Assembly (NCBI RefSeq): GCF_032362555.1
Contig: NC_083514.1
Location: 10,835,001 to 10,899,000, forward strand
Reading direction: 5' to 3'
DNA from: Amyelois transitella
Lineage: Eukaryota; Arthropoda; Insecta; Lepidoptera; Pyralidae
Length of the DNA stretch: 64,000 nt
Shown: in pieces, positions 24,801 through 58,778 of the stretch
Layout of the letters: each line of letters opens with the position of its first letter
How positions within the stretch are numbered: the first letter of the stretch is position 1
Notes under the pieces: generated by a model
Seen by the model: the letters and a program-made list of their open reading frames with translations, nothing else
Database searches by the model: none
What the model was told of the DNA's origin: nothing
Translations under genes and position numbers: made by a program

Positions 24801-27800
24801 TTTAACCAGGAATGATAGTTTACATAATAAATGCTGTACATAAAAATATATAAAAAAAAGAGTAAAAGCGTAACTATACAATCACTTTTCTTAATATACT
24901 GGATAAATGCAACAGTTGCTTACACTGCTACAACTCTAATGTAACTAGTGTCAATACTAGGAGTAAATCATCGGGGGATTAAATTCTATGTAATTATTCG
25001 TCTCTACTTTTAGATGTTAATTACTAAGAGACCGTAGGTAACATTGAAGGCACGATTTGTGACCTTAGGAAAGGCGATTACATCTAACGTGACTGTCTGG
25101 TGCCACTATCACAAGAGAGATTTCATCACATTTATCACAATCAGAATAACACGGGAAGATGATAAAAGATTTGTCAACCTTTGTTAAATTTAAACATGAT
25201 TTTTGACGCTAATTTTCTAAAACAAGTGTAAAACCTTGCATGTATAATTCGGAACTAACAAAACGTATTCCAATAAAAATATCAAAAAGGCGATGATATG
25301 TAGAATTTAACACTAACTGCGTTCAATATACTTAAACAATATGGAGTATTTAATAGTGACTAAAATTCACTGCGTCTCGTTACGTTGCTATGTACAGGCG
25401 TCGACGTTGTCCTGCTTGAAGTAATGCTCTGGCTTCATGTGCACTTCGCGGTGCATTCGTTCCATATGGCGCGCGATATGCATCTTTTGCTTCGCTCTGT
25501 ACACGCAGTACGGGCATTGGAACTGGGGCTCCTTGCCGCACTCCCATTTCTGATGGTTGCGGAGTGAGGATTTGAGTTTGTAGACTCGGCCGCAGTCCGG
25601 GCAGTTGAAGCTGGGCTCGCCCGGGGCCGGGGCGGCCTGAGCCGGCACCCGCAGGTTGACGAGCGGGAGCGCCAGCCGCGCCGACCACTGGTCCCACGTG
25701 AGGCCTCCGATCCTAGTGAAAGACACGTCTTCCGGCGCGCAACCCCCGCCTGAAATCGCGACAACAGTCATAAAGTGATTCACCCGCGCACGCGCACACA
25801 AACAACATTCAACATTCCCGTGAGGTTAACAACAGTTACAAGCGATACGTTGAAGATGTTATATACATATAAGATAGTGTACACATAAAATACATAGACG
25901 TATATAGGATATACATATACTAAAGATATCTACTGTGAATTTCCACCGAGTGCTGTGATGAAAGCTTTGCAAAAGGAAAGTAAAAAAAAAGAACAAAAAA
26001 GAAATCATAACGTTTATTTTTTAGATTATGTCTGTGTCTTTTGAGGATTAATTGAGGATTTCGTGGTTTTCAAACAATAGCAACATTTATAAACATATAA
26101 TTCGAGCGTAAAACCAGCATCAAGAAATGTTACTGGATCGAAACTTTTAGTCACTGCATTTGAATTTTATAAAACATTGTTAATTTATGTAGTCTCCCGA
26201 CCCACGGGTTTTCTTGTCTACCTGAAATGTATTAATTATATTAGTATGAACGAAAAAGAAAAGGGAAAATCATTTGCCTCATGCGCAACTCGGAACGCAA
26301 GCGATGCCGACTTAAAATTCAACAACAAACCATGCCCCATGCACTGTTAACACAACTCTGGGTTGAAGGGGAATATCTTTGAATTGTATAAAAACAAACT
26401 TACCAAACAATTGAACGACTACGAACAAAAAAGAGACAACCTATGAAGGAAAATAATGAGGACTAAGAAAAAACAAAATGTGGTTATACTAAACTATATT
26501 TGAAAATTTCCTACCAAATGAACCCCAATATATTCATATAAAATCACACTACTCAAAAACTAGTTTTCCAATAATATTAACAAACAATATAAACTTTATA
26601 ACATCAAATTTTAGACTAATCATACATCAGTAGCTTACAATATAACATGATATGGGAATATTGCATCAACAACAATTACTGCTTAGCAATGACTTGAATG
26701 TTTAACCAGTAACATCCACCGTCTTATCATCACGTTTATAACACTAATACTGACTTTGGTCAAATAGCTTTGTTATCCTAGTTTAACAAAAATATCAACA
26801 GTCAATATGCTAACCAACTTGAAATATTGCAGTTCAATATCTGTTAATATCAAGATAACATTCTTTTCAAAATTTTGAACACATTTTTTTATCCCAGTTT
26901 TTTTTTAAATACATCGAATTCATGATTATTTGCTATAATAAATTACATACATCTACAGGTAACATTGTAGGCACATAATGGATGAGCTTCAAATATTTAT
27001 CTAAAATTTTAAAATACCTCAAAAACGTCGCAGTGCATTACTGCTATAATAAATTTGAGGCCAACAACCTCTCAAATGAGCCCTCAACAGCCTAAATTTT
27101 AATAATATCTATAATCTAATAAATAAACCTTTAATAATTAACTTTGGGTTTTCATATAAGAATGTAAGGAAGATATGATCGTGGTCCCTCTCACTAAAAA
27201 CGTAGATCGAAGAAACAAAAAATAGAATATGAAAAATAACTTATAGAACATAATCAACGATTCTTATATCCTGCAAAATAGAATATAAAATTACTTTTTC
27301 TACCCGTGATAGAATTATAAGACTACAAACAATAAAAATTTTATAAACGACTAAACGATGGTGTTATAACAATAATATTTCATTATAAATATCATTTTCT
27401 TTTCCCTTATAATATCATTGCACTAAGTTCTAAATTTGGAATTATATTCCTTTTCAGGAAAGGTAGTAAATTTATATACTAAAAAAATTCGAGATTTAAT
27501 GGACATTATTTTTGGAACTAAATTGCATAAGCCGTTCGTAATAACAATTTGGAATGAGGTGGTTTAGGCGTATTAATTAATAATTAAAGGTTACTACTAA
27601 GAACGGCTTCCTATCATCGGCAATTACACAAATTACTCGACCTTCGGCCGTATGCTTTCCAATGAAATACTTTGGGTCAGTCTTAACTACATCAATAAAC
27701 TCTAAAACGAAAACAACAAACGATCGCTAATGCCGTTAAGGAATGTGCACATTAAAACTAATTTTTAGTAAATAATAAAATGGTTCAACAAAAACGTAAC

Positions 27801-30800
27801 TTTAAATAGTTATAAATAATTATTGCAGTACCGATTTGGTTAGGTATCTACTTTGGTCTAATTGATTTTTAAACGTAAACGTGTCTATATCGACGTCTTT
27901 TTGTTCCGCCTGACTTTGTTGCTGGCGTATATGTACCACTCGTTGTTGTGGTGCTTCCTGATGTGGACGCCGAGGTTGCCCCGCTGCTTGGCCTTGTAGG
28001 AGCAGTACGGGCACTGGTGCGAGGGCGCTTTACCGCCGCACTCCACGTTCTCGTGGCGCCGCAGAGTGGACTTCCAGCGGTACTTCTTGCCGCAATGCCG
28101 GCATTCAAACTGGCGGCTGGCGTCGTCCGAGCTGTTGCCGTCTCGTTTGCCATAGTGCCCTTTGGCGTCCGGTTTGGATTCGAATATGTCGCCGGGCAGG
28201 CTGCCGGCGCCCGAGATGTACCCGCTATTGTCGTAATACCCCTCCGCCTCCTCCTGCAACACTATATCGTCCGTGTCGTCATATTCCGCGTCGGATTCGT
28301 CGTCTTTGGTGGGTTTATAGTCGACATTCTGTCCGACACTGTTGTTGTTTTGCATAAAGGCTTGTTGCAGGAGGTGGGCCTTGATGTTCTCGGGTATGGA
28401 GTCGATGGGCAGCTTGGGGAAGTGCGGGCGGAAGGAGAGCTCCTTGTGTTTGGCGAGAGGCGCGAGCTGCAGCACGGGCGGCACGAGCTGCTGCGCCGAC
28501 AACAGCGACAGCAGCGCCGGCAATGACGACTCCTTGTGCAAGTCTGCAATACAACACATTAACGTATTGCAAAATAAAAAGTTAAGCGCAACTACGTACG
28601 GACTTGTTAATACTACCAAAGGCTAAAATAAAATTAAGGAACCAAAGAAATGCGTTATAATTGTAATAAAAAAAAAAATAAGATAACTTCTGTTAGAAAT
28701 TAAGGCGAAGCTTCTATGTTCATGCAAACATGCACAATCCAAAACGGAATCTCGTTAACTCATCTTCCCATAAATCTTTAGGGGCGGGTTCTAACATTCG
28801 GGGTGTGGAATTGAAAAGCTCGTTACTCTTACACGACTTTAATAGGTAAAAATTGACAAATATCAATCGAATTACGAATATATAAGTATACAAGGCTCAT
28901 ATAAAATATATGTATTTAGAATAAGGAAGATCATCGTAGAGATAAGGCACTAGTGTAAAGCACTAAAGTATTTCAGTTAGTTAGTTCAATCGTTTTTGAG
29001 GTCGACGGGGGATCTGATCTCGGGGATCTGGCTGGCGTGCTTGGGGTGCTTCTTCTGGATGTGGCGCGTGAGCTCGTTGCGGCGGTGCTTGCTGTACGAG
29101 CAGAACGGGCACTTGTACTGCGGCTCGCGGCCGCACTCCAGCGTCACGTGCCTCACGAGATTCTTGCGCGCGTTGTACAATCGCTGACAGTTGGGGCATT
29201 TGAACCCTTTCTCAGTCTTATATTGTGCGCAGGGCAGTTGGTGGCCGCTTTTAGGAAATATGTTGTAGGGCGACACAGATTTGCGCTCCGGCGTGAGCGA
29301 CGAGCGCTCGAGCGGAGAATCTGGCAAGGATTTGATGGAGGCGTTCGGCGACGGCTTGTTGGACGCGTTGGGAGTTTGCTTCTTGTTCTCTTTGCTGTCC
29401 TCCTTCACCAGATTGGCTGACGGTACGTTTTTCAATATTGCGAAAGTGGTAGCTTCTGTATCCGCGGTTACTTTTTTACTACGGGTCTCGATTTTTTGTG
29501 TAGGCGTTGGTTTTCGACCTGGAATAGAAAATTCAAATACATTTCGTTTTCGATTGAATATCTATGTAATGATGTCTTGTCTTATGTCTAAAAAATGCAA
29601 CAAAACGAAATAAAAACCGGAATCATTACAAATGAAAGTGTATTCATAAAATAAAAAAAAATAAAACGAAAAAGATAACGATAAGAAAAACAACAAACAA
29701 TTGCAAAAAGTATTAAAAGTAGATAACACTAGTAAAAACTTAAAAAAAAAAAATAGCTTCGCTATGTAACAAAATCTATTTGACGCTTATAGTTCAAAAA
29801 CTGAGACCTCTTGATTAAACTACAACAAAAAAAAATCAACAAGAAATAAATGAACAGTTCCGATAACACTGGACTAGTGTTTACAGGAATAATATCTTCC
29901 TTGATTCATAAATAAACTATTCTAACTGTGGCTTATCTAAACTTTATATAATATACCGGAAAAACTCCTGTAAACTCTATAATTTCTTAACAATTCATGT
30001 TGAACAAATGAAAAAAAAAAGCATGATACAACAAAAAATAAAAAATAAATTATTTTTTCAATGTAAGAGGCACATCGACCCAGTCAGGATGTTTCAGAGC
30101 GATGTGGGAAGTGAGTGTTTTTTTCTGAGAATATCTTTTCCCGCACATATCGCAGCCGAACTGCGGGCCCGTGTTACATTCGTATTTCTCATGTCTCAAC
30201 TTGTTCCTCCTGTACTTGTATTGTTTTTTCTTACATATGGAGCAAATGTATCTGGGCCCGCCATCCGTGGTTTGAGCTTTCGTGCCGCAACACCCGGCTT
30301 GTTTCCTCTTTAACTTTTTCTGACTATTAATGCCAATTTTCTTTGTAATTATCTTTTTGATACGTTTCCTTCCACGGCGAGGTTTATTGCCGTCTTGGAT
30401 TTCTCTCTTATCAATGTTCTTAAGATACCCGCGGGTTAAGGGGAAAGGAGTTTTGATGAAAGGCAGTGCGCTAGTTAGTTCAATGATTGATTTGGGTGGT
30501 TCTGCAAGGGGAAAACATGAAAAGCAGGATAAATAATGAAGAGCAGAAAACATATTAGCCACATAGATAAGATAAACATGTAAAAATAAGATGCAACAAA
30601 TGAGTTGTAGTATTTATTGACAGTTATTGATCAGTGCAGAGCTAACATGAAGGTGAAATGAAATAATATACATAGAGATATAAGCATGTAAAGATTTGAA
30701 AATTGCTAAGCGGCTGTCATACTAATGATAGATATGAGGGTGTTGCCAGCGGGATCCAGTTTGAAGACGAATGATTTCCATCCGAGAGAGACCTACATAA

Positions 30801-36800: not shown

Positions 36801-39800
36801 AAGAAGGAATAATATTCCCCGTTTTTTTCTATATTTTCCATTATTTCTTCGCTCCTAATAGTTGCAGCGCGATGATAAAAGCCTTCCTCGATAAATGGTC
36901 TATTAAATACAAAAAGAATTTTTCATTTCGAACCAGTAGTTCCTAATATTAGCGCGTTCAAACAAACTCTTAAGCTTTATAATATTAGTATAGATCATGT
37001 ATACTGACTGCGTACGACGTCGTTGTGCGTGGGCGGCGCCTGCTCCTCCATCTCCTCGTCCAGCGTGAGGTCCTCCACGCCGTCGCGCGCCGCCTCCTGC
37101 TTGCACGCGGGCTCGTCGCCGTTGCCCTGCGGCGCGGGCGCGGCCGGCGGCGCGGGCGCGGGGGCGGCCGCCTCGCTGCTGCCGCGGCGCGCTTTCTTCC
37201 GCCGCCGCGACGGACTCACGGAGCCTTCGCGACTGTCTATGCTGCCTTCTCTTGCCTGTCAAACACGCGAGGGGTTGGATAATTCGTCAAATGAAAAGTT
37301 ACTATCTATTCTGTATTGAATTGAGTCATCATTGTTAGCGCCGGCCACGCTGCTAACCTTTTTTGGTCGGCGCCATAGTTTTATATTTTACCATTGTGAA
37401 AAAAGGGAAATGACATGGGCCTTAGAAAATAATTGACGATATGTTTTTGCTAGGGCATTGTATCTTAACATAAGTTTTTTTCTGAAATATAACATATTAG
37501 GGATCAAGCCATCGTTTCATCATTTCTCCAACCTCAACCAGCGCCTCTATAACTCACAATCATTATACAACAGTCCTCCAGTTATACACGTTTTTTTATG
37601 TAGGACGTGCTTTCATCCATGATTTAATTTTAAAAGATCTATATTTGCAAATTGACATCCCGTGATAGCTGCTTCTACACAATGCGCTTTGGAAACGATA
37701 GTAATTATAAGTATATAATAAAACTAATGTTGATGTCAGTAAGTTATTGTATAATCCCTGTAAGTATACAATTTTGAAAATAAATCTATTCTCTGCTAAT
37801 TCAATACCATAACCCACTGCTGGGCACAAGCCTACGCCAACCTTCTCTATCCTGTAGTGATATTAGATGTATTTACAAGTTCATTGCCTAAAAGTACCTA
37901 TTTGGAATATTTGAATGGCAATTCAATTAGCTATACAGCTGAACATAGCCTTTCAGTCTTTTCAATGTTGGACCTGTCTACCTCATAAGCCATTAAGATA
38001 TGATTATATGTATGTTTGCTATTTTACGATGCTGATTTTCAAGAAAATCTCACGGTTTGGTCAATGCCTAATTGAGTGATAATTTTTACATAAGATATTC
38101 ATGGTTAAAGATAATTTTTGTTTATGTTTCGTGTACTCATTGTAGTTTAGTGTATGGAATGGTAGGTATATAAAGAACTAAGATTAATTTTCAAATAGTT
38201 ACCACTTAGGGAAATCAACAGTGTATTATTAATATAAACATACAAAGCTCTCAATAATATGGTTTTGTTTATTTATTCAACATGTTATGCAATCAGTACA
38301 AAAACATGTGACTGTCATATTTTTCTGTCTTTCCAACTAATTTAATTAAAAAAAATATAAAATTCAATGGATGACTGGCCTATGGGTATTTCAAATACAT
38401 ATTATCATATTAACCTCTCTTAATGAATTTGTCAATTAATGTAAACCATGTAGAAATGTTCACAGTAGTTTGTTATGATTGAAAATGATTTAAATACTAC
38501 TATAATAACACCAAAGATCATTATGTTTAATTTAACTGCACAATTTGTAGTTAATATGTTTACTATTTATAGATGCATTGAGTATTGAATGTGCTATTGT
38601 TCCACTAAGAAATTGCCAAAAGAACTCATCATAGCATTTCTGTGTCATCTGGGACAAGCAGAATTATGAACATCTTAATAATTATCAAATAAACATTTTA
38701 ATTTTTTTTATAGCATAAATCCCCATTTAATTTCCAGCTGTTAGTTTTGTGAAAAGGGCTTTTGCAATTTTTGGTTAGCAGTTTGCAACAAAGCTTGCCC
38801 CAAATTATATTGACCTACTATTGGCTTACATTTTTGTGCAGTAAAGCCCCCTTAGTCACACTTGTTACTTTTTTTCTATTATTTCAGAAAATCAAAGAGA
38901 AAACAAGAAAGACTTAAAGTCCCTATGTACTTTATGTTGTGTGAATAGACCCACATTCTTAAAAAAATGAAAGGAAGTGGTTTATGGTGTAATAGAATGG
39001 GACCAATCCAAATTCACTAGAGAATCATCTATGTAAAGTAAGAGTGAAATCAAAGTAAACCCGCTGCAATGACGCGTGCAACTTGAAGTAAATGCTTTCA
39101 GTATCCTATTTTTCAGATAATACATGTATAAAATGTGCACGTACCATACCTTTATTTTATCTTGGGACATTTAGAATCATGTGACAATGATCCGTGGTCA
39201 TTAATTATAGTAAGATAATAAGAAAGTCATTTTATGAATACTGTTCGGTCAATTACTTATTTGGCTATAATCAAATGTCTTTTTGCGATACTTCTTTAAA
39301 ACAATAGACTAAATTATTACTCCATTAGAAAGCCATCCAGGTACAAAAACTGAATCAGGGATAAACATGCGACACTTGTATGTATATTATGTAAAAGTTG
39401 GTTGTTTGGCTATTTTGTCCAATGAGTTTAAACCTAAGATTTGAAGCAATGAAACTTACTTGTGGCGGAGGCGAGGGCACGCGTGGCGGGTGTGCGGGCA
39501 GCGCGGCGGGCGCCGGGCGCGACGGAGGCCGGGACGGCTTGTTGTCAGACAGACCTTTGATCTGCAGAGACTCCGCAGCCTTCAGCAGGGCGGCCAGCTG
39601 GTCTTGGGAAATGTTCACTTCCCCACGGTACATGTAGTCCATCATAGCCCTCAATTCTGCATACTTCACATCTTTCAATATTATTATTGGATGTTTGTCA
39701 TACTGTTGAGATAATACACTCTGCAACAAAAACATTCACATGTTTACTTTTGGAACTTATGAGTAAAAACAAATGAGTGTTTAGAATTTATTGACAATGA

Positions 39801-40284
39801 TTATCTGAATTTCATCAACAAGGCTTGGCCATTATCTTAAATGTCAATTAATAACATGAATCATTACTGACATGTCTCTGGCCAAAATTGTCAGAGGCAT
39901 AGGATTTTTGAAAGCATGTAGTTTAGGAAAGTAGTAGAAACAACTTTCAGTTGCCAACTCATCTATGTATGAAATGTAAACTAATTGCTAACGCACGAAA
40001 GCTAGAATGCAATAAATGGAATGCTTATTAGAGCAAAACTGTGCTGCCTTGTAACTTAAACACGATACCAATTGACCTACATAATACATTAGAACGAGTT
40101 AGATACGAACCTCAAAATATGGGCTGCAAGCGGAGAGGACAACTTTGTGAGCCTTGAGCGTCTGCCCTTCTGCAGCCAAGGTACAGTCCACGTGAATGCC
40201 TTTCTCGAGTAGTGTGTCGAAAACGGACACCAGCGTCGACTGGTGATTGTTCCACCGAAGGCAGAATTGCTGGTCGTCGTCCAT
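18596..40284 (-). CDS. lola: lola (longitudinals lacking), BTB zinc-finger isoform locus
   Basis: The gene is read on the minus strand. Constant exons are 40284-40111 and 39720-39460 (BTB) and 37255-37009 (linker), together about 227 codons ending in phase 1. Alternative terminal exons, each with a phase-1 acceptor, are 30501-30050, 29518-28986, 28543-27885, 25749-25388, 21912-21638 and 18882-18596. They would give proteins of about 377, 404, 446, 347, 318 and 322 aa. Family knowledge: Drosophila Lola is a nuclear BTB-TTK factor for axon guidance and cell fate; about 20 C-termini are made by alternative, partly trans-, splicing. Seen here: [51 protein letters not shown] and [15 protein letters not shown], all diagnostic of Lola. 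The next gene is psq, divergent, as at Drosophila 47A from memory. Confidence 0.94.
18883..21132. other. lola intron / UTR sequence, no exon seen
   Basis: Very AT-rich sequence between terminal exons. A Helitron 3' end is recognisable at about 19965-20057 (CGGCGAACGAAGTCGCGG ... CTAG). Otherwise nothing supported. 3'UTRs of the exons to the right must extend into it. Confidence 0.45.
21133..21293 (-). CDS. Possible finger-less lola terminal exon
   Basis: TTTACAG acceptor in phase 1, then 53 in-frame codons ([20 protein letters not shown] ... [12 protein letters not shown]) and a stop. The coding part has higher GC than its flanks. Phase and position fit the terminal exon array, and joined to the constant exons it would give about 280 aa with BTB but no zinc finger. 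Finger-less Lola isoforms exist in flies. No homology is recalled for the peptide, so this is a candidate only. Confidence 0.35.
21638..21912 (-). CDS. lola: lola terminal exon b: zinc-finger pair
   Basis: Acceptor TTTCAG, phase 1, 90 residues then stop. [16 protein letters not shown] leads into finger 1 ([23 protein letters not shown]2HC) and finger 2 ([23 protein letters not shown]2H2), then [12 protein letters not shown]. This is the regular Lola layout: a short N-terminal spacer, paired fingers separated by RKQPSFK, and a short tail. Confidence 0.9.
21913..25387. other. lola intron / UTR sequence, AT-rich
   Basis: No coding exon seen apart from a reverse tRNA-SINE at 23228-23461. Long AT-rich stretches. 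The 3'UTR of exon c should occupy part of the right end. Confidence 0.5.
23228..23461 (-). mobile_element. tRNA-derived SINE, reverse orientation
   Basis: Same family as the 12840 copy. On the minus strand the A box is near 23450 (CGCAGTGGTAGTACG) and the B box GGTTCGAATCC is near 23400. The 3' end reads to about 23228. The short open frame across it is an artefact. Confidence 0.8.
25388..25749 (-). CDS. lola: lola terminal exon c: zinc-finger pair
   Basis: Acceptor TTTCAG, phase 1, 120 residues. The spacer ([20 protein letters not shown], then an Ala/Pro-rich run) precedes finger 1 ([22 protein letters not shown]) and finger 2 ([22 protein letters not shown]). The tail [18 protein letters not shown] ends at 25388. 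GC-rich against a very AT-rich surround. Confidence 0.92.
25750..27884. other. lola intron / 3'UTR, no exon seen
   Basis: Extremely AT-rich with no repeats of the main families recognised and no supported exon. It must include the 3'UTR of exon d at the right end. Confidence 0.45.
27885..28543 (-). CDS. lola: lola terminal exon d: long acidic spacer and zinc-finger pair
   Basis: Acceptor ATTGCAG, phase 1, 218 residues, the longest of the array. It starts [20 protein letters not shown], then an acidic block ([20 protein letters not shown]) that may act as a transcription-control region (inference). Finger 1 is [22 protein letters not shown] and finger 2 [22 protein letters not shown], followed by [20 protein letters not shown]. 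The finger pair has the strongest Lola look of all six. Confidence 0.94.
28986..29518 (-). CDS. lola: lola terminal exon e: Ser/Lys-rich spacer and zinc-finger pair
   Basis: Acceptor ATTCCAG, phase 1, 177 residues. [16 protein letters not shown] and a low-complexity Ser/Pro/Asn/Lys stretch with S-P sites ([19 protein letters not shown]) precede finger 1 ([22 protein letters not shown]) and finger 2 ([22 protein letters not shown]). Tail [18 protein letters not shown]. The spacer looks phosphorylatable; this is inference. An open frame starting at 29435 is internal and not a start. Confidence 0.92.
30050..30501 (-). CDS. lola: lola terminal exon f: basic spacer and atypical zinc-finger pair
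   Basis: The terminal exon nearest the constant part. Acceptor CTTGCAG, phase 1, 150 residues. The spacer is strongly basic ([18 protein letters not shown], then [11 protein letters not shown]). Finger 1 ([23 protein letters not shown]) has 13 rather than 12 residues between the second Cys and His. Finger 2 ([22 protein letters not shown]) is a plain C2H2 finger, unlike the CPYC type of the others. It ends VDVPLTLKK. Confidence 0.92.
30502..32212. other. lola intron between exon f and the cassette exon
   Basis: AT-rich. A 41-nt segment at 31105-31145 is framed by splice-like signals. A minus open frame at 30722-30973 has no finger motif. Nothing else is supported. Confidence 0.4.
31105..31145 (-). 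other. Possible 41-nt micro-exon, phase conflict
   Basis: TTTTTTATAG acceptor and AAAAAG|GTAAAC donor bound it. It is open in two frames. Entered in phase 1 it exits in phase 0, which does not fit the terminal exons; entered in phase 2 it exits in phase 1. It may be an untranslated or unused exon. Confidence 0.15.
32213..32284 (-). CDS. Possible symmetric 72-nt lola cassette exon
   Basis: Acceptor TTGTTTTCAG and donor AAG|GTAAGCTC bound 72 nt. Entered in phase 1, it is open throughout ([23 protein letters not shown]) and leaves in phase 1. It could therefore be included or skipped between the linker exon and any terminal exon without changing frame, adding 24 residues. The peptide is acidic and Ser-rich. 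No homology is recalled; support comes from signals, phase and position. Confidence 0.5.
32394..32660 (-). mobile_element. Family A SINE-like repeat, full length
   Basis: CATACATACATACATATG tail, CCCTTACGGGGTAGACAGAG, CAAATAGTGACGGGTTGCTAG, CGACATCCATGGGAACGAG, GTGCCGGAAACCACACGG head. About 265 bp; one of the most complete copies. Confidence 0.8.
32661..33744. other. lola intron, no exon seen
   Basis: AT-rich sequence without recognised exon or repeat. An AAAATGGCTGACC string at 33031 resembles a YY1/Pho core, but single short motifs carry little weight. Confidence 0.35.
33745..34680 (+). mobile_element. Relic of a BEL/Pao-type LTR retrotransposon
   Basis: The plus frame 33756-34106 carries reverse-transcriptase blocks of the Pao/BEL type ([36 protein letters not shown]). 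After a non-homologous stretch, the plus strand from about 34345 to 34640 shows the integrase C-terminal part ([20 protein letters not shown]) broken by stops and frameshifts. Most of RNase H and the integrase core is missing. A dead, internally deleted copy inside the lola intron, opposite to lola; no LTR pair was recognised. Confidence 0.7.
34855..34975 (+). mobile_element. Helitron-like 5' fragment, second subfamily
   Basis: ATAGTATAAAACAAAGTCGC, then ACGCAACGGATTTTGATGCG and TAGAGTGATTCAAGAGGAAG, a sequence pattern widespread in moths. No 3' end with hairpin and CTAG was found. Confidence 0.4.
34976..35719. other. lola intron, no exon seen
   Basis: Mixed sequence with low-complexity AT blocks. 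A repeat-like 35270-35345 section (CACTCCAGTCTGACCTCCGC) may be a family D remnant. Nothing coding. Confidence 0.3.
35720..35850 (-). mobile_element. LINE 3'-end fragment
   Basis: On the minus strand it carries the same terminal region as the 5090 copy (ATGAATGTGGATGAAGCG, AAAGATCGTGGCAA, CTACCCCTCCGG), diverged. Confidence 0.5.
35990..36187 (+). repeat. Unclassified ~200-bp repeat shared with a psq intron
   Basis: Matches the reverse complement of 49920-50092 over most of its length: GTCTAAATCGC, GCCGCGGTTCCCCAGGCAT, GGCGGAAGATCTT and TTTGGTGGCGGTCGAG in order. Origin unknown; an LTR or a transposon end is possible. Confidence 0.6.
36524..36677 (+). mobile_element. Short Helitron, 154 bp
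   Basis: TCCTTTACTAATATTAAAAATG at the 5' end and AAAGCTAG at the 3' end (CTAG at 36674-36677), with A before and T after. The body (GATAAACCGCTAGATC, GAAATTTGGCCCAG) is a third subfamily. Confidence 0.5.
36740..36994 (-). mobile_element. Helitron, 255 bp, adjoining the lola linker exon
   Basis: On the minus strand it starts TCTATACTAATATTATAAAG at 36994 and ends with the GCGGATGAAGTCGCGGGC hairpin and CTAG at 36740. A precedes and T follows. Its 5' end lies 14 nt inside the intron behind the lola linker exon (36995-37008 between), in sense with lola. Confidence 0.8.
37009..37255 (-). CDS. lola: lola constant exon 3 (linker)
   Basis: Acceptor TTTGACAG, phase 0. The exon encodes [20 protein letters not shown], an Ala/Pro run, then [20 protein letters not shown]. 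The best donor is GTCAGT at 37008, leaving one base and matching the phase-1 acceptors of all terminal exons. GTACGC six bases earlier would be phase 0 and out of register. The RRRKKARR cluster is a plausible nuclear localisation signal. Very GC-rich. Confidence 0.85.
37256..39459. other. lola intron 2, no exon seen
   Basis: AT-rich, with one family A 3' fragment at 37915-38012 (plus; AGCTGAACATAGCCTTTCAG, TTATATGTATG). No other supported feature. Confidence 0.45.
39460..39720 (-). CDS. lola: lola constant exon 2 (BTB C-terminal half)
   Basis: 87 codons, phase 0 on both sides. It holds [20 protein letters not shown], the [13 protein letters not shown] helix region and [16 protein letters not shown], then a Pro-rich stretch ending SPPPQ at the donor GTAAGT. 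The intron between this and exon 1 falls after SPYFE, inside the BTB fold. Confidence 0.95.
40111..40284 (-). CDS. lola: lola constant exon 1 (start codon, BTB N-terminal half)
   Basis: 58 codons from the ATG at 40284 ([20 protein letters not shown]) to CSPYFE at the donor GTTCGT. A longer upstream frame exists but crosses a splice acceptor (TTATAG at 40326), so the MDDDQQ start is preferred and agrees with known Lola N-termini. Confidence 0.95.
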
Positions 40285-48600: not shown

Positions 48601-51600
48601 TCGAGGCGCTGCGGAAACATAACATGAGTCTCACTAAGGTAAACTAGATGGCGCTAGTTGTAACTTGCGAGAGAATGAATAATTCAAGAATTAATCAATC
48701 TATTCTTTATATTATCTATTTTTTTATATTTCAAGATCATGACATTTCGTAAAAGGCGACTAAGGGTTAGACTTATAAACTAGGGATTCTTATTTTAGGC
48801 GATGGGCTAGCAACCTGTCACTATTAGAATCTCAATTCTATCATCAAGCCAAATATCTGAACGTGGCTTATCAGTCTTTTCGGACTGTCGGCTCTGTCTA
48901 CCCCCAAGGGATATACATGTGACTATATGTATGTATGTGTCATGACTTTGAGAAGGTAGGTAGAATAGGCTTTTTGCGCGTACAGAATCAAAAAATTGGC
49001 TATCTTTACAACAACGCCCGTAAAGGTTTGTAATAAATGACACAATTATTTGTTTAGAACAAAATAACGGCGGTAACTAAAGTTCCTCAACAAACCTAGG
49101 TATTACAAGTGGTACCCAACATATAAGTTGAATCAAAATGACTGCCCCGTTGTCTCTGCAAGTGCAATAAGACCTCGTAAAGTTTATTAAACGGATAGCG
49201 AGTAGGTCGCCATAATGAGAATTAGTCCAAATGCGCCAAATGTTCTTACGGCACATTTTTTCTTTTTATAAATATCCCTATCAATAAAATCGTGTATCAG
49301 GCTTCAGCGACATACGGCATTCCGTCGACGACGCTCTGGCAGCGAGCACACCGGCTCGGCATCGACACGCCGAAGAAGGAAGGCACCTCCAAGTCGTGGA
49401 GTGAAGCTGATCTCAGGGGAGCCCTGCACGCATTACGAGCGGGAGCAATTTCCGCCAATAAGGCTAGCAAAGCCTACGGTAAGAGTTGAATTACGGTGAT
49501 CATCATACCATTATTCTCTTTGAGGTTGTTTACATCTTGGAGAGCGGGGCTAGCATGGCATGTGCGATTTCTTTTTGTCACGCGATAAACTATCGCTATT
49601 TCGCTTTTTATAATAACGTGAAACGTGACAGCGATAGTTTATCCAGCGAGATAAATACGACGTCGCGCGTGTCGTGCTATCTCCGCAGAATTAGTTTAAA
49701 TTCACGATTCAGTTAAGTCTGATCCCCGTGACTCTGGCAATAAAAGATTCTTACCTACAAGTTACAGCTACGATCATTCTTCTGAAGCAAAATTCTTTTG
49801 AAGTCGTCATCGTCCTCATGGCAAATGTTTCGGTTTTGGTCCTCACTGAGGGGGAAGGGGAACGTTTTGTAGGATCTGAGGGCACAAAACTAGTCTGTAA
49901 TGAAAATTACGAGTATGTATGTAGCGGGAGCGATGATTCGGCTCGACCGCCACCAAAGGAAAGATCTTCCGCCAGGCTAGATTTGATGCCTGGGGAACCG
50001 CGGCTTCGACGATGTTGAGTCGGAGGTTGTATTTATGCTACAATCCGTCTTTGTTTTCGCGATTTAGACTCTTCGTTGCTGTTAACTGAGCGCGTCATTT
50101 TCTTCGCTATGATTGACAGTTGGTGTGTGACATCAGTGATGTCACCACATGTCTTTATTAAACCACTATAAACTACTGGCCAGGGATCCCCAGCAGCACG
50201 CTGTACAAGATAGCTCGCCGCGAGGGCATCCGGCTCGCGGCGCCCTTCAACGCGGCGCCCACCGCGTGGCGGCGCGCCGACCTGCAGCGCGCGCTCGACG
50301 CCATCCGCTGCGGCGCCAGCTCCGTGCAGCGCGCCGCCTCGCAGTTCGGGATACCCACAGGTCAGGCGGTCTAACTCTTTAACGTTACAGAGACATCTAG
50401 CAGCGTCCGAGGAAGTTCAGCGGGAAGGAATATGCCTCCCTTTTTTCTCTGTCTTAACACAAGAGTGTATACATACATATGGTCACGTCTATATCCCTTG
50501 CGGGGTAGACAGAGCCAACAGTCTTGAAAAGACCACTCGCCACGCTCAGCTATTTGTATCAATAGACAGTTCAGTATCAATTCCATCGAGACACCATGTA
50601 GCTGGACGTGGTCTTTCAGTCTTTTCAACCGTTAGCTCAGTCTACCCCGCAATTCAGAATTGATATTGACTATTTGAAGGGCTCCTCGCGGCGAGCTATC
50701 TTGTATAGCGTGCTGCTGGGGATCCCTGGCCAGTAGTTGTACTTAATACAAGAGTGTATATTTAGTTTTATTTAGTTAGCTCGACCGCCTATAAACAAAA
50801 TAATATAGCATATTACAGATAAATAAAGCAAATAGTTGAAAGCTCTTGGATTTGTGACATTTCAAATGTCATAGGCATATGTGTGATAGTATTGAGTGAT
50901 TTGGCCCCTAGCAATTATTCATAAATACATACATACATAATACATGCTTACAAACTTGGGATTCTTTTTTAGGCGATGGGCCAGCAACCTGTCACTAGTT
51001 GAACCTCAATTCTATCATTAAGCCAAATAGCTGAACGTGGCCATTTAGTCTTTTAAGATTGTTGGCTCTGTCTACCCCGCAAGGGATATAGACGTGACCA
51101 TATGTATGTATATACATACATATTAACACTGCTATATCCCCTGCGGTGTAGACTGAGCTAACGGATGAAAAGACTGAAAGGCCACGTCCAGCTACATGGT
51201 GTCACGATGAAATTGAGATTCAAATTGGGAGTGGTTGCTAGCCCATCGCCTACAAGAGGAATCCCATATTTATAAGCCTGTGCTTCAATCGCATTTTACG
51301 ACATCCATGGGAAAGATACGGAGTGCTTCTATTCTAAAGTGCCAAAAACACACGAAACTTATTCAATATATTTCTATTGGAGAAAGACGTCTATAGGTCT
51401 TCTGTAAATTCTTCTACCGATTGAGAAAATGTTGACTAAATGCACAATTTCCAGGCACTCTGTATGGTCGCTGCAAACGCGAGGGTATCGAGTTGTCTCG
51501 CTCCAATCCCACTCCTTGGTCGGAAGACGCCATGGGGGAGGCGTTAGAAGCTGTCAGGTAATCCAACACTATTGAGAAGTTATGCTAATGCTAGCAAAAT

Positions 51601-53280
51601 ACAAAAAGAATGCAAGCTATTGCTCGCGGTCGAGTTTTCAGAATAGAATTATCATCATTATTTGTCGTCCGTGGGGAATGAATGAATAACTCTTCATTCC
51701 ACATTTAAGTAATACTTTAGTACAAATTTTATTTAGTTTTTGTTACGGTCGAAGTTGACGTGTGCCCACGATCTAGAAGCGAAATTGGTTATTATAGTTA
51801 GAACTTTACCAATATCTCGGCAAAATCTTAATAAACCTATTACTCATTATACAAACAAGGTCTCAGTACAAAGCATAAGTTCATTTTTTTGAGTTAATAA
51901 ATACAAACTTAGTAGCCCCTTTGGTGATCTGAGGGGTTAATGCGAGTTTTACTCGATCAAACGCGTCTAGAAAGTAAACGCGAATTTGTATGTGATTTGA
52001 TCAGCGCCACCTAGTGGTAACGCGATGGCATTAATGCAATTCCAAACGAATTTTTGCAGAACTATTCATTATTTGTTTTAGGGTAGGACAAATGTCAATA
52101 AACCAAGCAGCCATCCACTTCAACCTGCCTTACTCCTCGCTGTATGGCAGATTCAAACGATGCAAGTACCAAATGCAGGTGAGGAGTCATTAGTATTTTT
52201 TTTTATTTTAACCGATAGACGGACATATTAAAAATTAATTGTTTTTTTTTTACCACGACACCCGTAGACCGGTTATAGTCAAGACACGGTATATAATGTT
52301 CACAGGATAGCACAGAGGAAAGTAGATAGATGAAGATACAATGCGATAGAGAAAGGATGAAAGTTCTCTTTAATACGATATAAACTAAAACTAATGTAAT
52401 AAGAAAGTGGGTAGGTGGATAACAATTACGCGACGTACAAACAAGTATGCGTTTCGCGTCTCAGTGAATTTTAGACTGATGTCGCTGTGGCATCGCTACT
52501 CCGGCGCATCACTACGCCCCACACAAAACCGTTGTTCGGGAGGCGACGAGCGCGTCGGAAGAGTCGATGCTCCGTTGTCGATATCGATGTCAACAATGTG
52601 GTACACAACACAATATTTAAATAATCCGACTTAGATATAGTTTAATTATATATGTGGGTTGTAATATTAGCTTAATTTGAGTAATTAATTGTAAATAATA
52701 ATAAGTTGTAAATGATATATATTAACATAATCCGACTTATAGTTTAATTATATATGTGGGTTGTAATATTAGCTTAATTTGAGTAATTAATTGTAAATAA
52801 TAATAAGTTGTAAATGATATATATTAACTACAAAATATGAATCGTTTTAATTTGTGTGAGGTAGCCTTCAATACAAACCAAACAAATAATTTAGTTTAAA
52901 TGACATTAATAGTTTAAATTCATTTCTTTATTCCTATCCTTCTACGAAAATTTGTATCCTATTAGAAAATGGTAAAATAATCTGTTCCCTACTTTCTTGC
53001 GACATCTCATGTACCCTTAGGTTAATAAATTTTATACAAATTAATAATTTAGAATTTAATTTTTTTTACACTCAAGTTTATATCAATTTTTCAGACACTT
53101 CAACCAATGTCGCAAACAGATCAAAAGCCAATAGAAATGGAGCAGACGTGCCAACCGCACGAGGTTTTCTACCAACATCCGGAGCAGTACATGCAACCTA
53201 CAGATATGATGGAACAAAACATTCAAAATATTCCAATGTTCGATTACCAGGCGTACTATCAAAATGGAGTCGTCAGTTGA
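45607..53280 (+). CDS. psq: pipsqueak (psq), four psq-type HTH domains, no BTB seen
   Basis: Ten coding exons: 45607-45699, 46399-46482, 47267-47401, 47900-48011, 48490-48638, 49301-49478, 50184-50360, 51455-51557, 52082-52178 and 53095-53280. They total 1314 nt (437 aa plus TGA) with all phases matching. Family knowledge: Pipsqueak is a nuclear GAGA-binding factor linked to Polycomb and to EGFR, Toll and growth pathways; BTB and BTB-less isoforms exist in flies. Seen here: MPGNGAAQIKCEPLSDDDD, several K-x-E-P sumoylation-like sites (VKQEP, VKDEP), and four psq repeats at about 168-212, 222-266, 277-321 and 329-373, each with a GIPSTTLWQR-type recognition segment. The Gln/Met-rich tail ends YQAYYQNGVVS. 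The first exon runs GAG-ATG from its acceptor, so a BTB isoform could be joined upstream. Exon 2 (28 codons, phase 0/0) may be a cassette. Confidence 0.93.
45809..45936. mobile_element. hAT-type MITE with 8-bp target duplication
   Basis: 128 bp in psq intron 1. Ends TGGAGATGGACAAATGCCCG and, reversed, TAGAGATGGGCAAATGCCCG. A second inverted pair (ATTGGGAAAATTCCCAAT and ATTGGGAATTTTCCCAAT) lies inside. Flanked by GTTATTAC at 45801-45808 and 45937-45944. The TIR type and 8-bp duplication are those of the hAT superfamily. Confidence 0.85.
46160..46310. repeat. Imperfect GAGACA/GATGTCT repeat cluster
   Basis: Many degenerate repeats of GAGACA(n)GATGTCT spaced 15-25 bp in psq intron 1. No fixed unit length. 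Non-coding. Confidence 0.5.
46490..46580 (-). mobile_element. Family A 3'-end fragment
   Basis: TACATACATACATATAGTC, CATTGCGGGGTAGACAGAG, GAAAAGACTAAAAGGCCACG. It starts 8 bp behind the donor of psq exon 2. Confidence 0.6.
47085..47222 (-). mobile_element. Family A 5'-half fragment
   Basis: GTGACAGCTTGCTAGCG, GAGGAATCCC, CGCCTTTTACGACATCC and CCACACGGCAC. It lies about 45 bp before the acceptor of psq exon 3. Confidence 0.65.
47528..47797 (-). mobile_element. Helitron, about 270 bp
   Basis: Same body as the 36740 copy. Its 3' tip has decayed from CTAG to TTAG, and the 5' end reads TCTATTCTAATATTATAAAG. Antisense to psq, in intron 3. Confidence 0.7.
48044..48130 (+). mobile_element. Family A 5'-end fragment
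   Basis: GCCGTGTGGCACTTTAAAAT, CATCGATGTCGTAAAAGGTG. About 85 bp, some 35 bp behind the psq exon 4 donor. Confidence 0.55.
48135..48245 (-). repeat. Family D fragment
   Basis: On the minus strand CTGGATTGGGTAAGTCAGTT, then ACCTCCGCAACCTTTGCC. Same family as 42045. Confidence 0.5.
48740..48940 (+). mobile_element. Family A SINE-like repeat, 5' end missing
   Basis: TCGTAAAAGGCGACTAAGGG, GGCGATGGGCTAGCAACC, GAACGTGGCTTATCAG, CTATATGTATGTATG. In psq intron 5. Confidence 0.65.
49544..49686. mobile_element. Foldback element (MITE-like), copy 2
   Basis: 143 bp in psq intron 6. Ends GCGGGGCTAGCATGGCATGT and, reversed, GCGGAGATAGCACGACACGC. The inner pair is GCGATAAACTATCGC and GCGATAGTTTATCC. Homologous to 42605-42742. 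Confidence 0.7.
49920..50092 (-). repeat. Unclassified repeat shared with a lola intron
   Basis: The reverse complement aligns with 35990-36187. It ends about 90 bp before psq exon 7. A 17-nt palindrome TGACATCA-G-TGATGTCA follows at 50128-50144. Confidence 0.6.
50470..50555 (-). mobile_element. Family A 3'-end fragment inside a rearranged insert
   Basis: CATACATATGGTCACGTC, CCCTTGCGGGGTAGACAGAG, CAACAGTCTTGAAAAGACC. First part of the complex insertion in psq intron 7 (about 50472-50741). Confidence 0.6.
50575..50652 (+). repeat. Inverted copy of the family A copy at 51139-51217
   Basis: It shares the private variants of that copy (GACACCATGTAGCTGGACGT, GTTAGCTCAGTCTA) in reverse complement, with only a handful of differences over ~78 bp. 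This suggests local templating rather than an independent insertion. Confidence 0.55.
50684..50738 (-). repeat. Inverted copy of the psq exon 7 5' end and acceptor
   Basis: The reverse complement is identical to 50171-50225 over 55 nt except one base. It includes the acceptor (CTGGCCAG) and the first 42 nt of exon 7. The lone mismatch becomes a G-U pair in RNA. The arms are separated by 458 nt. Confidence 0.9.
50935..51115 (+). mobile_element. Family A copy, left arm of an inverted pair
   Basis: GCTTACAAACTTGGGATTC, TAGGCGATGGGCCAGCAACC, CAAGGGATATAGACGTGACC, TATGTATGTATA. It faces the next copy tail-to-tail. Confidence 0.7.
51110..51350 (-). mobile_element. Family A copy, right arm of an inverted pair
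   Basis: TATACATACATATTAACAC, CCCCTGCGGTGTAGACTGAG, CCACGTCCAGCTACATGG, ACGACATCCATGGGAAAG. It ends about 100 bp before psq exon 8. Confidence 0.7.
52621..52828. repeat. Tandem duplication, units of 106 and 102 bp
   Basis: 52621-52726 and 52727-52828 are the same sequence (ATAATCCGACTTA ... GATATATATTAAC). The second lacks 4 nt (GATA) and is otherwise essentially identical, so recent. In psq intron 9. Confidence 0.9.
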
Positions 53281-56913: not shown

Positions 56914-58778
56914 TCACACGCCGCCCGCCTGCTTGACGAGCGCGCGGTGCTGCGGCCGCCCGCCGCGCCACACGCGCCGCCACGACTCCAGCGTCTTGCC
57001 CGACCAGATCCACACGCCCGACGTGATGCCCACCGCCAGCGCCATGAAGTACTTCAGCATCAGCGCGTAGTACAGCGGCTTCTCCCCGCAGCCGGCGCCG
57101 CACGCGACGCGCTTCAGCCACGACTCGTAGCCGCCGGCCTCGTACGCCAGGCAGCCGATCACCACGCCCGCCGGCACCGCGTACAGCACGCTGAACACTC
57201 CAATTCTGATCATCAGTTTCTCGAGCTTGTCGGCCTTCGATCCGGCGCCGATTCCCCCCTGCCGCTTGATCACCGATCTGATTCTGAACAGCGACACGAA
57301 CCCGGCTAGAAGGAACGTCGCTCCGAGTGCAAAGTAGACTATCAATGGCGCTAACACGTATCGCCTCAGGTTCTCTGGTGAGGAGTTTCCGACGTAGCAG
57401 ATTCCGGCGACGGGATCACCGTCGACCGCGCCGGCGAGCAGGACGGCCACGGTCTTCGCGGCCGGGATGAGCCAGGCGGCGAGATGATAATACTGAGCGT
57501 GCCCGGCGATCGCCTCGTTACCCCACTTCAAGCCTGCCGCCAGAAACCACGCAAACGACAGCACCACCCACCAGATCGAGGACGCCATGCCGAAGAAGTA
57601 GACCAAAATGAAGACGAGCGTGCACGCGCTCGGGCCGTTGGCGGAGGTCTTGAGCACGGCGCCGTCACACGCCACCTCGTCGTGGCCCAGCGCCAGCCGC
57701 GCCAGGTAGCCCAGCGCCACCATGAAGTAGCAGGCCGACAGGTAGACTATCGGGCGCTCCGGGTACTTGAAGCGCTGCGAGTCTATCAGGAAGGTCGTGA
57801 GCGTCATGAGCGTGGAGGCGGCGCAGAGGCCGCTCCACAGCGCCACCCACACGGCCGCGAACTGCTTCTCCTCGCGCGAGAAGAAGGCGCCGCGGCACGG
57901 CAGCGCGCACGCGGCCGCGCCCGCGCCCGCCAGCGCGCGGCTGGCGTTGTGCGCGCGCGCGGGCTGCAGCGGCGGCCGGCACGCGCACGCGCACTCCGTG
58001 CCGCCCGCGCCCGCGCCCGCGCTTGCAGCCGGGCCGCTTTCGCAGTTTTTTGGATCCTTGCAGTGTTTATTGAACGTTTTCCTCGGCGGAGGTCTGGTCG
58101 GCTCCGGCTCGGGTTCTCTGTCGTTCTCGTCCATACACAGATGGTCGGGGTCGCCCATGCGCGGGAGTTTCTCGCAGGCCATTCGCTCGGGCCACTTGAA
58201 GCCGTACTGCTGCATGAGAGGCGCGCAGCCGGCGCGGGCGCGCTCGCAGACGCTGCGGCACGCGGGCAGGGGCTTCGCGTAGTCCTCGATACAGATGGGC
58301 GTGTACACGGAGCATAGGAAAAACTTGAGGTCAGCTGAACATTTGATCTCGACGAGAGGCCAATACTGATGTACCTGGAAACGAAAAATATAAAAATAAA
58401 CATTTGAAAAAAAAAACAAACAATCAAAAATTCCGTTATAGACGCTGGGTCCGAGGTTTAAACGGCTAAAAATGGTAATCGTAAAGATGAGAGAGAACGA
58501 ATATCAGTTTTAAAATCGAACCTATTTCTCTCAACCGCTACCTGTTTATCATTGAAACAATATTCATATGGTTTAGCACAAAATTCCAGTACAATACCGA
58601 CCTCTAACCCGGCCTCCTCCTGCGTGTCATGGTCCAGGGCGTTGGGGAACGACGTGAGGTTGTACCCGATGCCCCGGCACATGGGGATCACGATCTCCTC
58701 GCAGCGCGGCTGCTGCAGGGCCGCCCCGCCCGCGACCAGCGCCGCCAGCGCCACCACGGTCAACGCGCGTCGCCACAT
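56914..58778 (-). CDS. fz2: Frizzled-2-like Wnt receptor (Fz5/8 class)
   Basis: Two exons on the minus strand, 58778-58602 and 58374-56914, joined at phase 0 (AGLE|VHQYWPL): 545 aa plus TGA. Family knowledge: Frizzleds bind Wnt through a cysteine-rich domain and signal via Dishevelled; insect Fz2 serves canonical Wingless signalling. Seen here: a signal peptide (MWRRALTVVALAALVAGGAA); a CRD with all ten cysteines between about residues 26 and 139, including CRGIGYNLTSF (N-glycosylation at N40) and CSVYTPICIEDY; a variable Pro/Glu then Ala/Gly linker; seven hydrophobic segments from about residue 231; and the Dishevelled-binding KTLESW at about 519-524. The cytoplasmic tail is short (27 residues from KTLESW). 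Exon 1 follows an acceptor at 58803, so 5'UTR exons lie to the right. Strongly GC-rich. Confidence 0.95.

What the first reader, a model, noticed from the sequence alone, without database searches (positions are those of the whole stretch)
50171..50738. psq exon 7 acceptor is mirrored by a 55-nt inverted copy in the next intron
50171-50225 (12 nt of intron end, the AG acceptor and 42 nt of exon 7) is the reverse complement of 50684-50738 with one mismatch, which becomes a G-U pair in RNA. The pre-mRNA could therefore form a near-perfect 55-bp stem burying the 3' splice site. Exon 7 is 177 nt, phase 1 to phase 1, so skipping keeps the frame. It would fuse the first half of psq repeat 2 to the end of repeat 3, removing one DNA-binding unit. 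This could be a switch on Pipsqueak's domain count, an RNA-editing or dsRNA target, or a neutral accident.
Basis: partly seen in the sequence, partly recalled or inferred. Interest (0 to 1): 0.78.

Follow-up and report, generated by a model that had tools for sequence, protein, structure and literature searches.

The report
Retrotransposon insertion carrying inverted exon copy
A small mobile-element insertion in an insect gene appears to have picked up, in reverse, a 55-letter piece of the neighbouring exon, so the gene's RNA could fold back over its own splice site, but nothing found here suggests that evolution keeps this as a switch.

Summary
The inverted repeat is real: 50171-50225 and 50684-50738 pair at 54 of 55 positions plus one G-U; a genome search with the exon stretch returns only these two places. 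The copy is not free-standing. It is the far end of a 270-nt insertion (50472-50741) flanked by a 19-nt direct repeat (18/19), taken as a target-site duplication. The insertion starts with the microsatellite-tailed end of a dispersed element. It continues with a 75-nt inverted copy of an old repeat further down intron 7 (14 of 17 distinguishing states shared) and ends with the exon 7 piece. Orientation and order fit target-primed reverse transcription with jumps onto the gene's own pre-mRNA; DNA-level templated repair remains possible.

The predicted stem is very stable but is complete only 555 nt after the acceptor. The exon pair shows 1 mismatch where about 2 are expected from the insertion's decay, so no selection for pairing is needed. 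Skipping exon 7 keeps the frame but drops four residues inside the fused helix-turn-helix, which still scores above Pfam's cut-off, lower than the intact repeats. A regulated switch is not supported; skipping, editing and small RNAs are untested. New variant of a known kind.

The parts
49301..49478 (+). psq exon 6 (end of psq repeat 1, first half of repeat 2)
   Evidence: splice signals and open frame
50171..50225 (+). source arm: last 11 nt of intron 6, AG acceptor, first 42 nt of exon 7
50184..50360 (+). psq exon 7, 177 nt, phase 1-1
50453..50471 (+). left copy of the 19-nt direct repeat (target-site duplication)
   Evidence: no other copy listed aligns to its first 8 nt
50472..50741 (.). 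composite 270-nt insertion
   Evidence: bounded by the duplication
50472..50556 (-). segment 1: microsatellite-tailed end of a dispersed element; strand given on the inference that the microsatellite is its 3' tail
   Evidence: nearest listed copy elsewhere 96%
50557..50576 (.). filler A, no source found
50577..50651 (-). segment 2: inverted copy of 51142-51216 in the same intron
   Evidence: 14 of 17 distinguishing states shared; best match in the genome, 93% versus at most 87% in the other rows listed; reciprocal by identity
50652..50683 (.). filler A', weakly the reverse complement of filler A
   Evidence: a search with 50640-50700 returns only this place
50684..50738 (-). inverted copy of the exon 7 acceptor region
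50739..50741 (.). three extra nucleotides at the far junction
50742..50760 (+). right copy of the direct repeat (one transition from the left copy)
51142..51216 (+). source of segment 2: part of an old element copy
51455..51557 (+). psq exon 8
52082..52178 (+). psq exon 9

Best explanation
The inverted copy is the 5' end of a single composite retro-insertion in psq intron 7. Inferred steps: a LINE-type machinery nicked the + strand after 50471; the target end ...GTATA annealed to the microsatellite tail of a short retroelement RNA; reverse transcription copied about 85 nt of that RNA. The enzyme then jumped to psq pre-mRNA, copying 51216 back to 51142 and later 50225 back to 50171, crossing the unspliced intron 6/exon 7 border. 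The second-strand join left a 19-nt duplication. Because first-strand cDNA was made on the + strand and psq RNA is + sense, each host piece had to come out inverted. Shown: composite structure, direct repeat, sources, orientation, order. Inferred: one event, RNA rather than DNA as template, which enzyme. Today the pre-mRNA can form a 55-bp stem over the exon 7 acceptor, but most likely the exon is recognised first in nearly all transcripts and the insertion is close to neutral: a bystander, not a regulated switch.
For: 19-nt direct repeat (18/19) bounding the composite, the exon copy ending 3 nt from it. Same-family copies also show direct repeats of 13 nt or more (one mismatch allowed): 4 of 16 other window copies versus 2 of 147 control draws (P 0.0009; 5 of 150 and P 0.006 if three dropped draws are kept), and 4 of 25 fetched genome copies versus 8 of 400 (P 0.003). 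Segment 1 is the dispersed family's tail end, nearest listed copy 96%. Segment 2 shares 14 of 17 distinguishing states with 51142-51216; 17 other copies, the neighbouring copy and segment 1 share at most 5. It is the reciprocal best match by identity: 93% versus at most 87% in the other rows and at most 82% in those. The exon fragment was found nowhere else. Both host pieces have the orientation that an RNA template demands and lie in 3'-to-5' order along the transcript. One mismatch in the exon pair against about 1.8-2.1 expected. Full pairing of the arm to the copy appears only when the transcript reaches about 50738.
Against: No empty site from a relative and no RNA data were available. Two fillers (20 and 32 nt) have no source found, and A' resembles the reverse complement of A (3 of 2000 shuffles score as well), which hints at extra DNA-type switching. 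Within one RNA the jump must skip the stretch between the two sources. Only the best 40 of 1045 and 40 of 2276 candidates were scored, so an unseen closer relative of segment 2 is possible; longer copies reach similar bit scores (112 versus 113). Direct repeats of 13 nt or more were found in a minority of family copies. The predicted stem is extremely stable (duplex about -123 kcal/mol), so an effect on splicing cannot be dismissed. The test for selection on pairing rests on one change in 55 nt and has little power.
Confidence: 0.66

Rival explanations
1. DNA-level origin: the far end of an ordinary retro-insertion was sealed by error-prone repair (polymerase-theta end joining or microhomology-mediated break-induced replication) that copied two nearby DNA stretches in inverted orientation.
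For: Not counting the insertion, both host sources lie within about 455 bp of the site; unexplained filler; A' looks like a fold-back copy of A. Templated and inverted insertions at breaks are known (abstract starts only).
Against: In the one abstract start that gives lengths for inverted insertions (PMC11724301, yeast) they are mostly about 5-34 bp, while these are 75 and 55; a DNA template allows either orientation and order, yet both host pieces have the RNA-permitted orientation and order.
Confidence: 0.25
2. The stem is a functional splice switch: pairing hides the acceptor, exon 7 is skipped in some tissues and Pipsqueak loses part of its DNA-binding array.
For: The stem buries the AG once formed; the frame is kept; the fused repeat still passes the HTH_psq cut-off, three stretches remaining; the acceptor has only 4 T in the 20 nt before AG, the fewest of four psq acceptors examined.
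Against: The fused repeat lacks four residues and scores lower than either intact repeat; no excess conservation of pairing; the copy is complete 555 nt after the acceptor, about 11-22 s at assumed 1.5-3 kb/min; pyrimidine content of the acceptor is ordinary for this gene (11 of 20; exons 6, 8 and 9 have 10, 11 and 14); a strong block of a core exon should have been purged (inference).
Confidence: 0.12
3. The stem is a substrate for ADAR editing or Dicer-2, giving edited psq RNA or siRNAs against exon 7.
For: 55 nearly perfect bp plus an inner imperfect stem made by the element pieces.
Against: No RNA data; exon 7 may be spliced before pairing; no sign of selection.
Confidence: 0.2
4. A single replication template-switch mutation copied the exon arm into a pre-existing element.
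For: Such switches can make perfect stems in one event (PMC8794818, part 1 of 6 read).
Against: Does not explain the 19-nt direct repeat bounding the whole composite nor segment 2; needs the switch to end 3 nt from an older duplication by chance.
Confidence: 0.07

Closest known systems
Tripartite chimeric retrogenes from double template jumps during LINE reverse transcription (Magnaporthe WEIRD/Mg-SINE/MGL; PMC2104539, outline and abstract read)
   Same: three pieces of different origin fused in one insertion, flanked by direct repeats (14 bp there, 19 here)
   Different: there the partners are other cellular or element transcripts; here two of three pieces come from the gene that was hit, so they read inverted and can pair with it
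mRNA/LINE-1 chimeric insertions in mammals (PMC13174262; abstract, section 13 and passages read)
   Same: host sequence fused at the 5' end of a retro-insertion inside the target-site duplication (14-17 bp in the examples shown); host piece sense relative to the element in 15 of 17
   Different: those map mostly to the start of transcripts and six end at splice donors; this is an unspliced internal intron/exon border of the target gene
Lepidopteran microsatellite-tailed elements: SfSE1 with (ATGT)n tail and PxLINE1.1, partner of PxSE5, ending in ATGT repeats (PMC8010984, passages read); RTE microsatellite families (PMC2887409, part 1 of 8 and passages read)
   Same: elements ending in a microsatellite; duplications of 13 bp (PxLINE1.1) and 20 bp (HmRTE-e01)
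   Different: sequence identity to those families was not tested; the species here is unnamed and its placement in Lepidoptera rests on the repeat's look, recalled
Template-switch mutations that create RNA hairpins (PMC8794818, part 1 of 6 read)
   Same: one event can make a perfect stem
   Different: replication-based; no target-site duplication is part of that model
Alu-pair exon skipping in TBXT (review PMC11802352, passages read)
   Same: a retro-insertion creates an inverted repeat that can change inclusion of an in-frame exon
   Different: there the arms flank and loop out the exon; here one arm covers the acceptor itself, and no skipping is shown

Membership tests
Target-primed retro-insertion | target-site duplication bounding the insert | tested here: met
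   19 nt, 18/19, at 50453-50471 and 50742-50760; no empty site seen
Target-primed retro-insertion | element 3' tail next to the priming side of the duplication | tested here: met
   the family's microsatellite end abuts 50471; that it is the 3' end is inferred
Target-primed retro-insertion | same family integrates with duplications elsewhere | tested here: met
   13 nt or more in 4 of 16 and 4 of 25 copies, enriched over controls; the other copies show none of that length
Target-primed retro-insertion | endonuclease nick motif | not tested
   partner LINE not identified
Template-jump chimera | segments from different templates within one duplication | tested here: met
   segment 1 dispersed family, segment 2 from 51142-51216, exon piece
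Template-jump chimera | templates were RNA | tested here: inconclusive
   orientation and order fit; no spliced junction in the copy, so DNA is not excluded
Twin-priming inversion of one element RNA | both pieces derive from the same RNA | tested here: not met
   segments 1 and 2 match at 54 of 75 aligned positions; segment 2 carries distinguishing states of 51142-51216
Single replication template-switch mutation | whole change explained by one local inverted copy | tested here: not met
   two inverted host pieces plus an element piece and a direct repeat
Regulated exon-skipping switch | structure can cover the splice site | tested here: met
   in silico only
Regulated exon-skipping switch | skip product keeps intact domains | tested here: inconclusive
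   four residues lost in the fused repeat; 27.9 bits versus 39.5 and 51.9 for intact repeats, but above the cut-off of 20.4
Regulated exon-skipping switch | pairing conserved beyond neutral expectation | tested here: not met
   1 change versus 1.8-2.1 expected, P(<=1) 0.48 and 0.39; low power
Regulated exon-skipping switch | exon 6-8 junction RNA | not testable with these tools
   no RNA-seq
hpRNA/siRNA or ADAR substrate | small RNAs or A-to-G changes | not testable with these tools
   no RNA-seq

The most novel reading that the evidence does not exclude
Retroelement reverse transcriptase, while inserting antisense into an active gene, switches onto that gene's own nascent transcript and so writes inverted pieces of its exons into the neighbouring intron. 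This would be a direct, one-step generator of exon-covering hairpins (hence of splice-silencing, editing or hairpin-RNA loci), with a built-in orientation rule: inverted copies arise only when the element lands antisense to the gene. At psq the resulting stem gives a low level of exon 7 skipping or editing.
Probability: 0.2. Interest if true: 0.75.

Novelty: new variant of a known kind. Interest (0 to 1): 0.5.

Why it matters
It turns a puzzling inverted exon copy into a readable mutation record with sources, order and boundaries. If the template was the gene's own RNA, retro-insertions have a simple way to make near-perfect hairpins over host exons, with an orientation rule that any well-assembled genome can test. 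It also warns that near-perfect pairing over a splice site need not mean regulation: age alone can explain it here.

Tried and rejected
Twin priming of one element RNA: rejected, because segments 1 and 2 match at only 54 of 75 positions and segment 2 carries distinguishing states of 51142-51216.

Segment 1 copied from the nearby element at 51024-51115: it is the best match in the window by aligned columns (75 of 80; shares 4 of 7 distinguishing states), but dispersed copies match better genome-wide (96%), so it is taken as element RNA.

Known structured RNA: Rfam at gathering threshold gives one match in the window, a tRNA-like stretch at 11178-11249, far away. A mobile captured exon fragment: rejected, two genomic matches only.

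Name of the element family: a search of papers for a 17-letter string found none; Persaeus/Zenon (PMC6740152; part 1 of 5 and passages read) has a poly-A tail and does not fit the tail seen here; no family name is claimed. Prior art for jumps onto the target gene's own transcript: searches list 15 of 104, 12 of 44, 10 of 43 and 12 of 41 papers; none of the titles and abstract starts shown reports it; this is not proof of absence.

Mended counts: searches used 76 letters for segment 2 against its source; the right number is 75, and one search gives the corrected expectations (hardly changed). In one search, 3 of 150 control draws with a 30-nt match (probably the region overlapping its own flank) were dropped; one search gives the test with them kept. 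The scan used a wrong orientation for some loci and was redone, where one control draw of 22 nt was kept. Searches looked for locus files under wrong names and were redone.

Full report
OBSERVATION. The repeat is as described: 50171-50225 against 50684-50738, 54 of 55 identical after reverse complement, the odd pair being G-U in RNA. Exon 7 is 50184-50360, 177 nt, phase 1 to phase 1. The window is part of C10 of a 327-Mb genome in 33 contigs, and a search with 50171-50260 returns two places, the exon and the copy. Folding 49990-50790 gives the full stem, -352.6 kcal/mol against a shuffle mean of -255.3, none of 20 shuffles as low.

SURROUNDINGS. The sequence CTTAAYACAAGAGTGTATA occurs at 50453-50471 and 50742-50760, one transition apart. 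It does not look like part of the repeat family: no other copy listed aligns to its first 8 nt, and a scan of the window for its 13-nt core with up to 2 mismatches finds two further weak matches, neither at the tail end of an element copy. Between the two copies lie 270 nt. From left to right: 50472-50556, the microsatellite-tailed end of a dispersed element, nearest listed genomic copy 96%; a 20-nt filler; 50577-50651, an inverted copy of 51142-51216; a 32-nt filler; the inverted exon piece 50684-50738; three nucleotides; the second duplication. Of 9 inverted pairs in the window (at least 25 nt, at least 90%, arms under 3 kb apart), three join the insertion to psq exon 7 or intron 7.

SEGMENT 2. 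The sequence at 51142-51216 is part of an old element copy. At 17 columns it differs from the family majority; segment 2 has its state at 14 of these and the majority state at 3, while 17 other copies, the neighbouring copy and segment 1 have its state at no more than 5. Genome-wide (1045 candidates, 40 scored) the best match of segment 2 besides itself is that place, 93% over 75 nt and 113 bits; the next-scoring row has 84% and 84 bits, and the highest identity in any other row is 87%, over shorter stretches. In the reverse search (2276 candidates, 40 scored) segment 2 is the only other match above 82% identity, although longer copies reach similar bit scores, up to 112.

FAMILY BEHAVIOUR. 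Direct repeats of 13 nt or more, one mismatch allowed, between the tail side and the far side occur in 4 of 16 other window copies (control 2 of 147, P 0.0009; 5 of 150, P 0.006 with the dropped draws) and 4 of 25 fetched genome copies (control 8 of 400, P 0.003); 6 of these 8 lie at an offset of 227-274 nt, which would suit a full-length element. In the other 12 and 21 copies none of that length was found. Elements with ATGT-type or other microsatellite tails and 13-20 bp duplications are published for Lepidoptera (PMC8010984, PMC2887409; passages and first part read). That this genome is lepidopteran is my recollection of the repeat's look, from no call.

MECHANISM. First-strand cDNA primed at 50471 would be + strand. 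A piece copied from psq RNA, which is + sense, must then appear as its reverse complement. Both host pieces do, and they come in the order in which a reverse transcriptase would meet them on the transcript (51216 to 51142, then 50225 to 50171). The exon piece crosses an unspliced border, as nascent RNA would. If the microsatellite is the element's 3' tail, the exon copy is sense relative to segment 1, as in 15 of 17 mRNA/LINE-1 chimeras; the antisense ones are said to be perhaps more consistent with twin priming (PMC13174262). Double jumps with flanking 14-bp repeats have been described in a fungus (PMC2104539, abstract). DNA-level templated repair would also give local copies but does not demand this orientation and order; the one abstract start seen that gives lengths for break-induced inverted insertions says mostly about 5-34 bp. 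The two fillers stay unexplained; A' is weakly the reverse complement of A.

AGE AND SELECTION. Differences: segment 2 against its source 5 of 75 letters, duplication 1 of 19, segment 1 against the majority of seven best copies 4 of 85, exon copy 1 of 55. From segment 2 and the duplication the exon pair should show about 1.8 differences if only the copy drifts (P of at most 1 is 0.48). From the insertion's own changes (6 of 160, counting as its own the 2 of 5 segment 2 differences where the source has the family state) about 2.1 are expected (P 0.39). Nothing calls for selection on pairing, though with one change the test is weak. That the change keeps a G-U pair is also uninformative: 23 of 55 exon-arm letters allow it, a 21-28% chance for a random change. 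With a mutation rate recalled from the literature (2.9e-9 per site per generation, from no call), 3-4% per lineage is of order ten million generations, so relatives may share it.

EFFECT. Before the copy is transcribed the arm is partly paired with other stretches (mean 0.55-0.69), and the G of the AG is already predicted paired in most of the shorter folds, so folding alone overstates occlusion; exon 7 has a 9-bp hairpin of its own at the arm's end. As the transcript grows from 50683 to 50738 the share of the arm paired to the copy rises from 0 to 0.99. That is 555 nt after the acceptor, about 11-22 s at assumed speeds of 1.5-3 kb/min. The acceptor has 4 T in its last 20 intron nt before AG, fewest of the four examined, but 11 of 20 are pyrimidines, against 10, 11 and 14 at exons 6, 8 and 9. 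So some interference is possible. The skip product joins YG to TLYGRC, without IPSS/IPTG; the fused repeat drops to 27.9 bits but stays above the cut-off. The only solved relative found by sequence at E up to 1 is LCoR, E 0.0084. An insertion that strongly blocked this exon would probably not have lasted long enough to collect 3-4% changes (inference). My reading is a near-neutral scar; a switch gets 12%.

VERDICT. Observation confirmed; switch reading not supported by anything found here; the origin is better resolved than expected and is a new variant of a known kind.

Noticed in passing
50942-51335: Two copies of the same retroelement family lie tail to tail in psq intron 7, forming a long imperfect palindrome; the right one is the source of segment 2.
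   Followed up: partly
39541-40284 (-) and 25388-30562 (-): A BTB domain split over two exons and several zinc-finger-pair frames on the minus strand look like lola, next to psq as recalled for Drosophila; a query made from that BTB finds no second BTB in the window.
   Followed up: partly
11178-11249: tRNA-like sequence at Rfam gathering threshold, overlapping a stretch repeated elsewhere in the window; possibly the head of a tRNA-derived SINE.
   Followed up: no
52636-52828: Tandem duplication of a 102-bp unit (1.9 copies, 100% match) about 460 nt downstream of psq exon 9, presumably recent.
   Followed up: no
56914-58419 (-): 501-aa open frame with a cysteine-rich part and the seven-helix look of a Frizzled-type receptor (by eye).
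   Followed up: no
L032:7545-7599 and 7852-7906: Another 55-nt, 98% inverted pair, AT-rich, with a third copy in the sample; might be terminal repeats of a small DNA transposon.
   Followed up: partly
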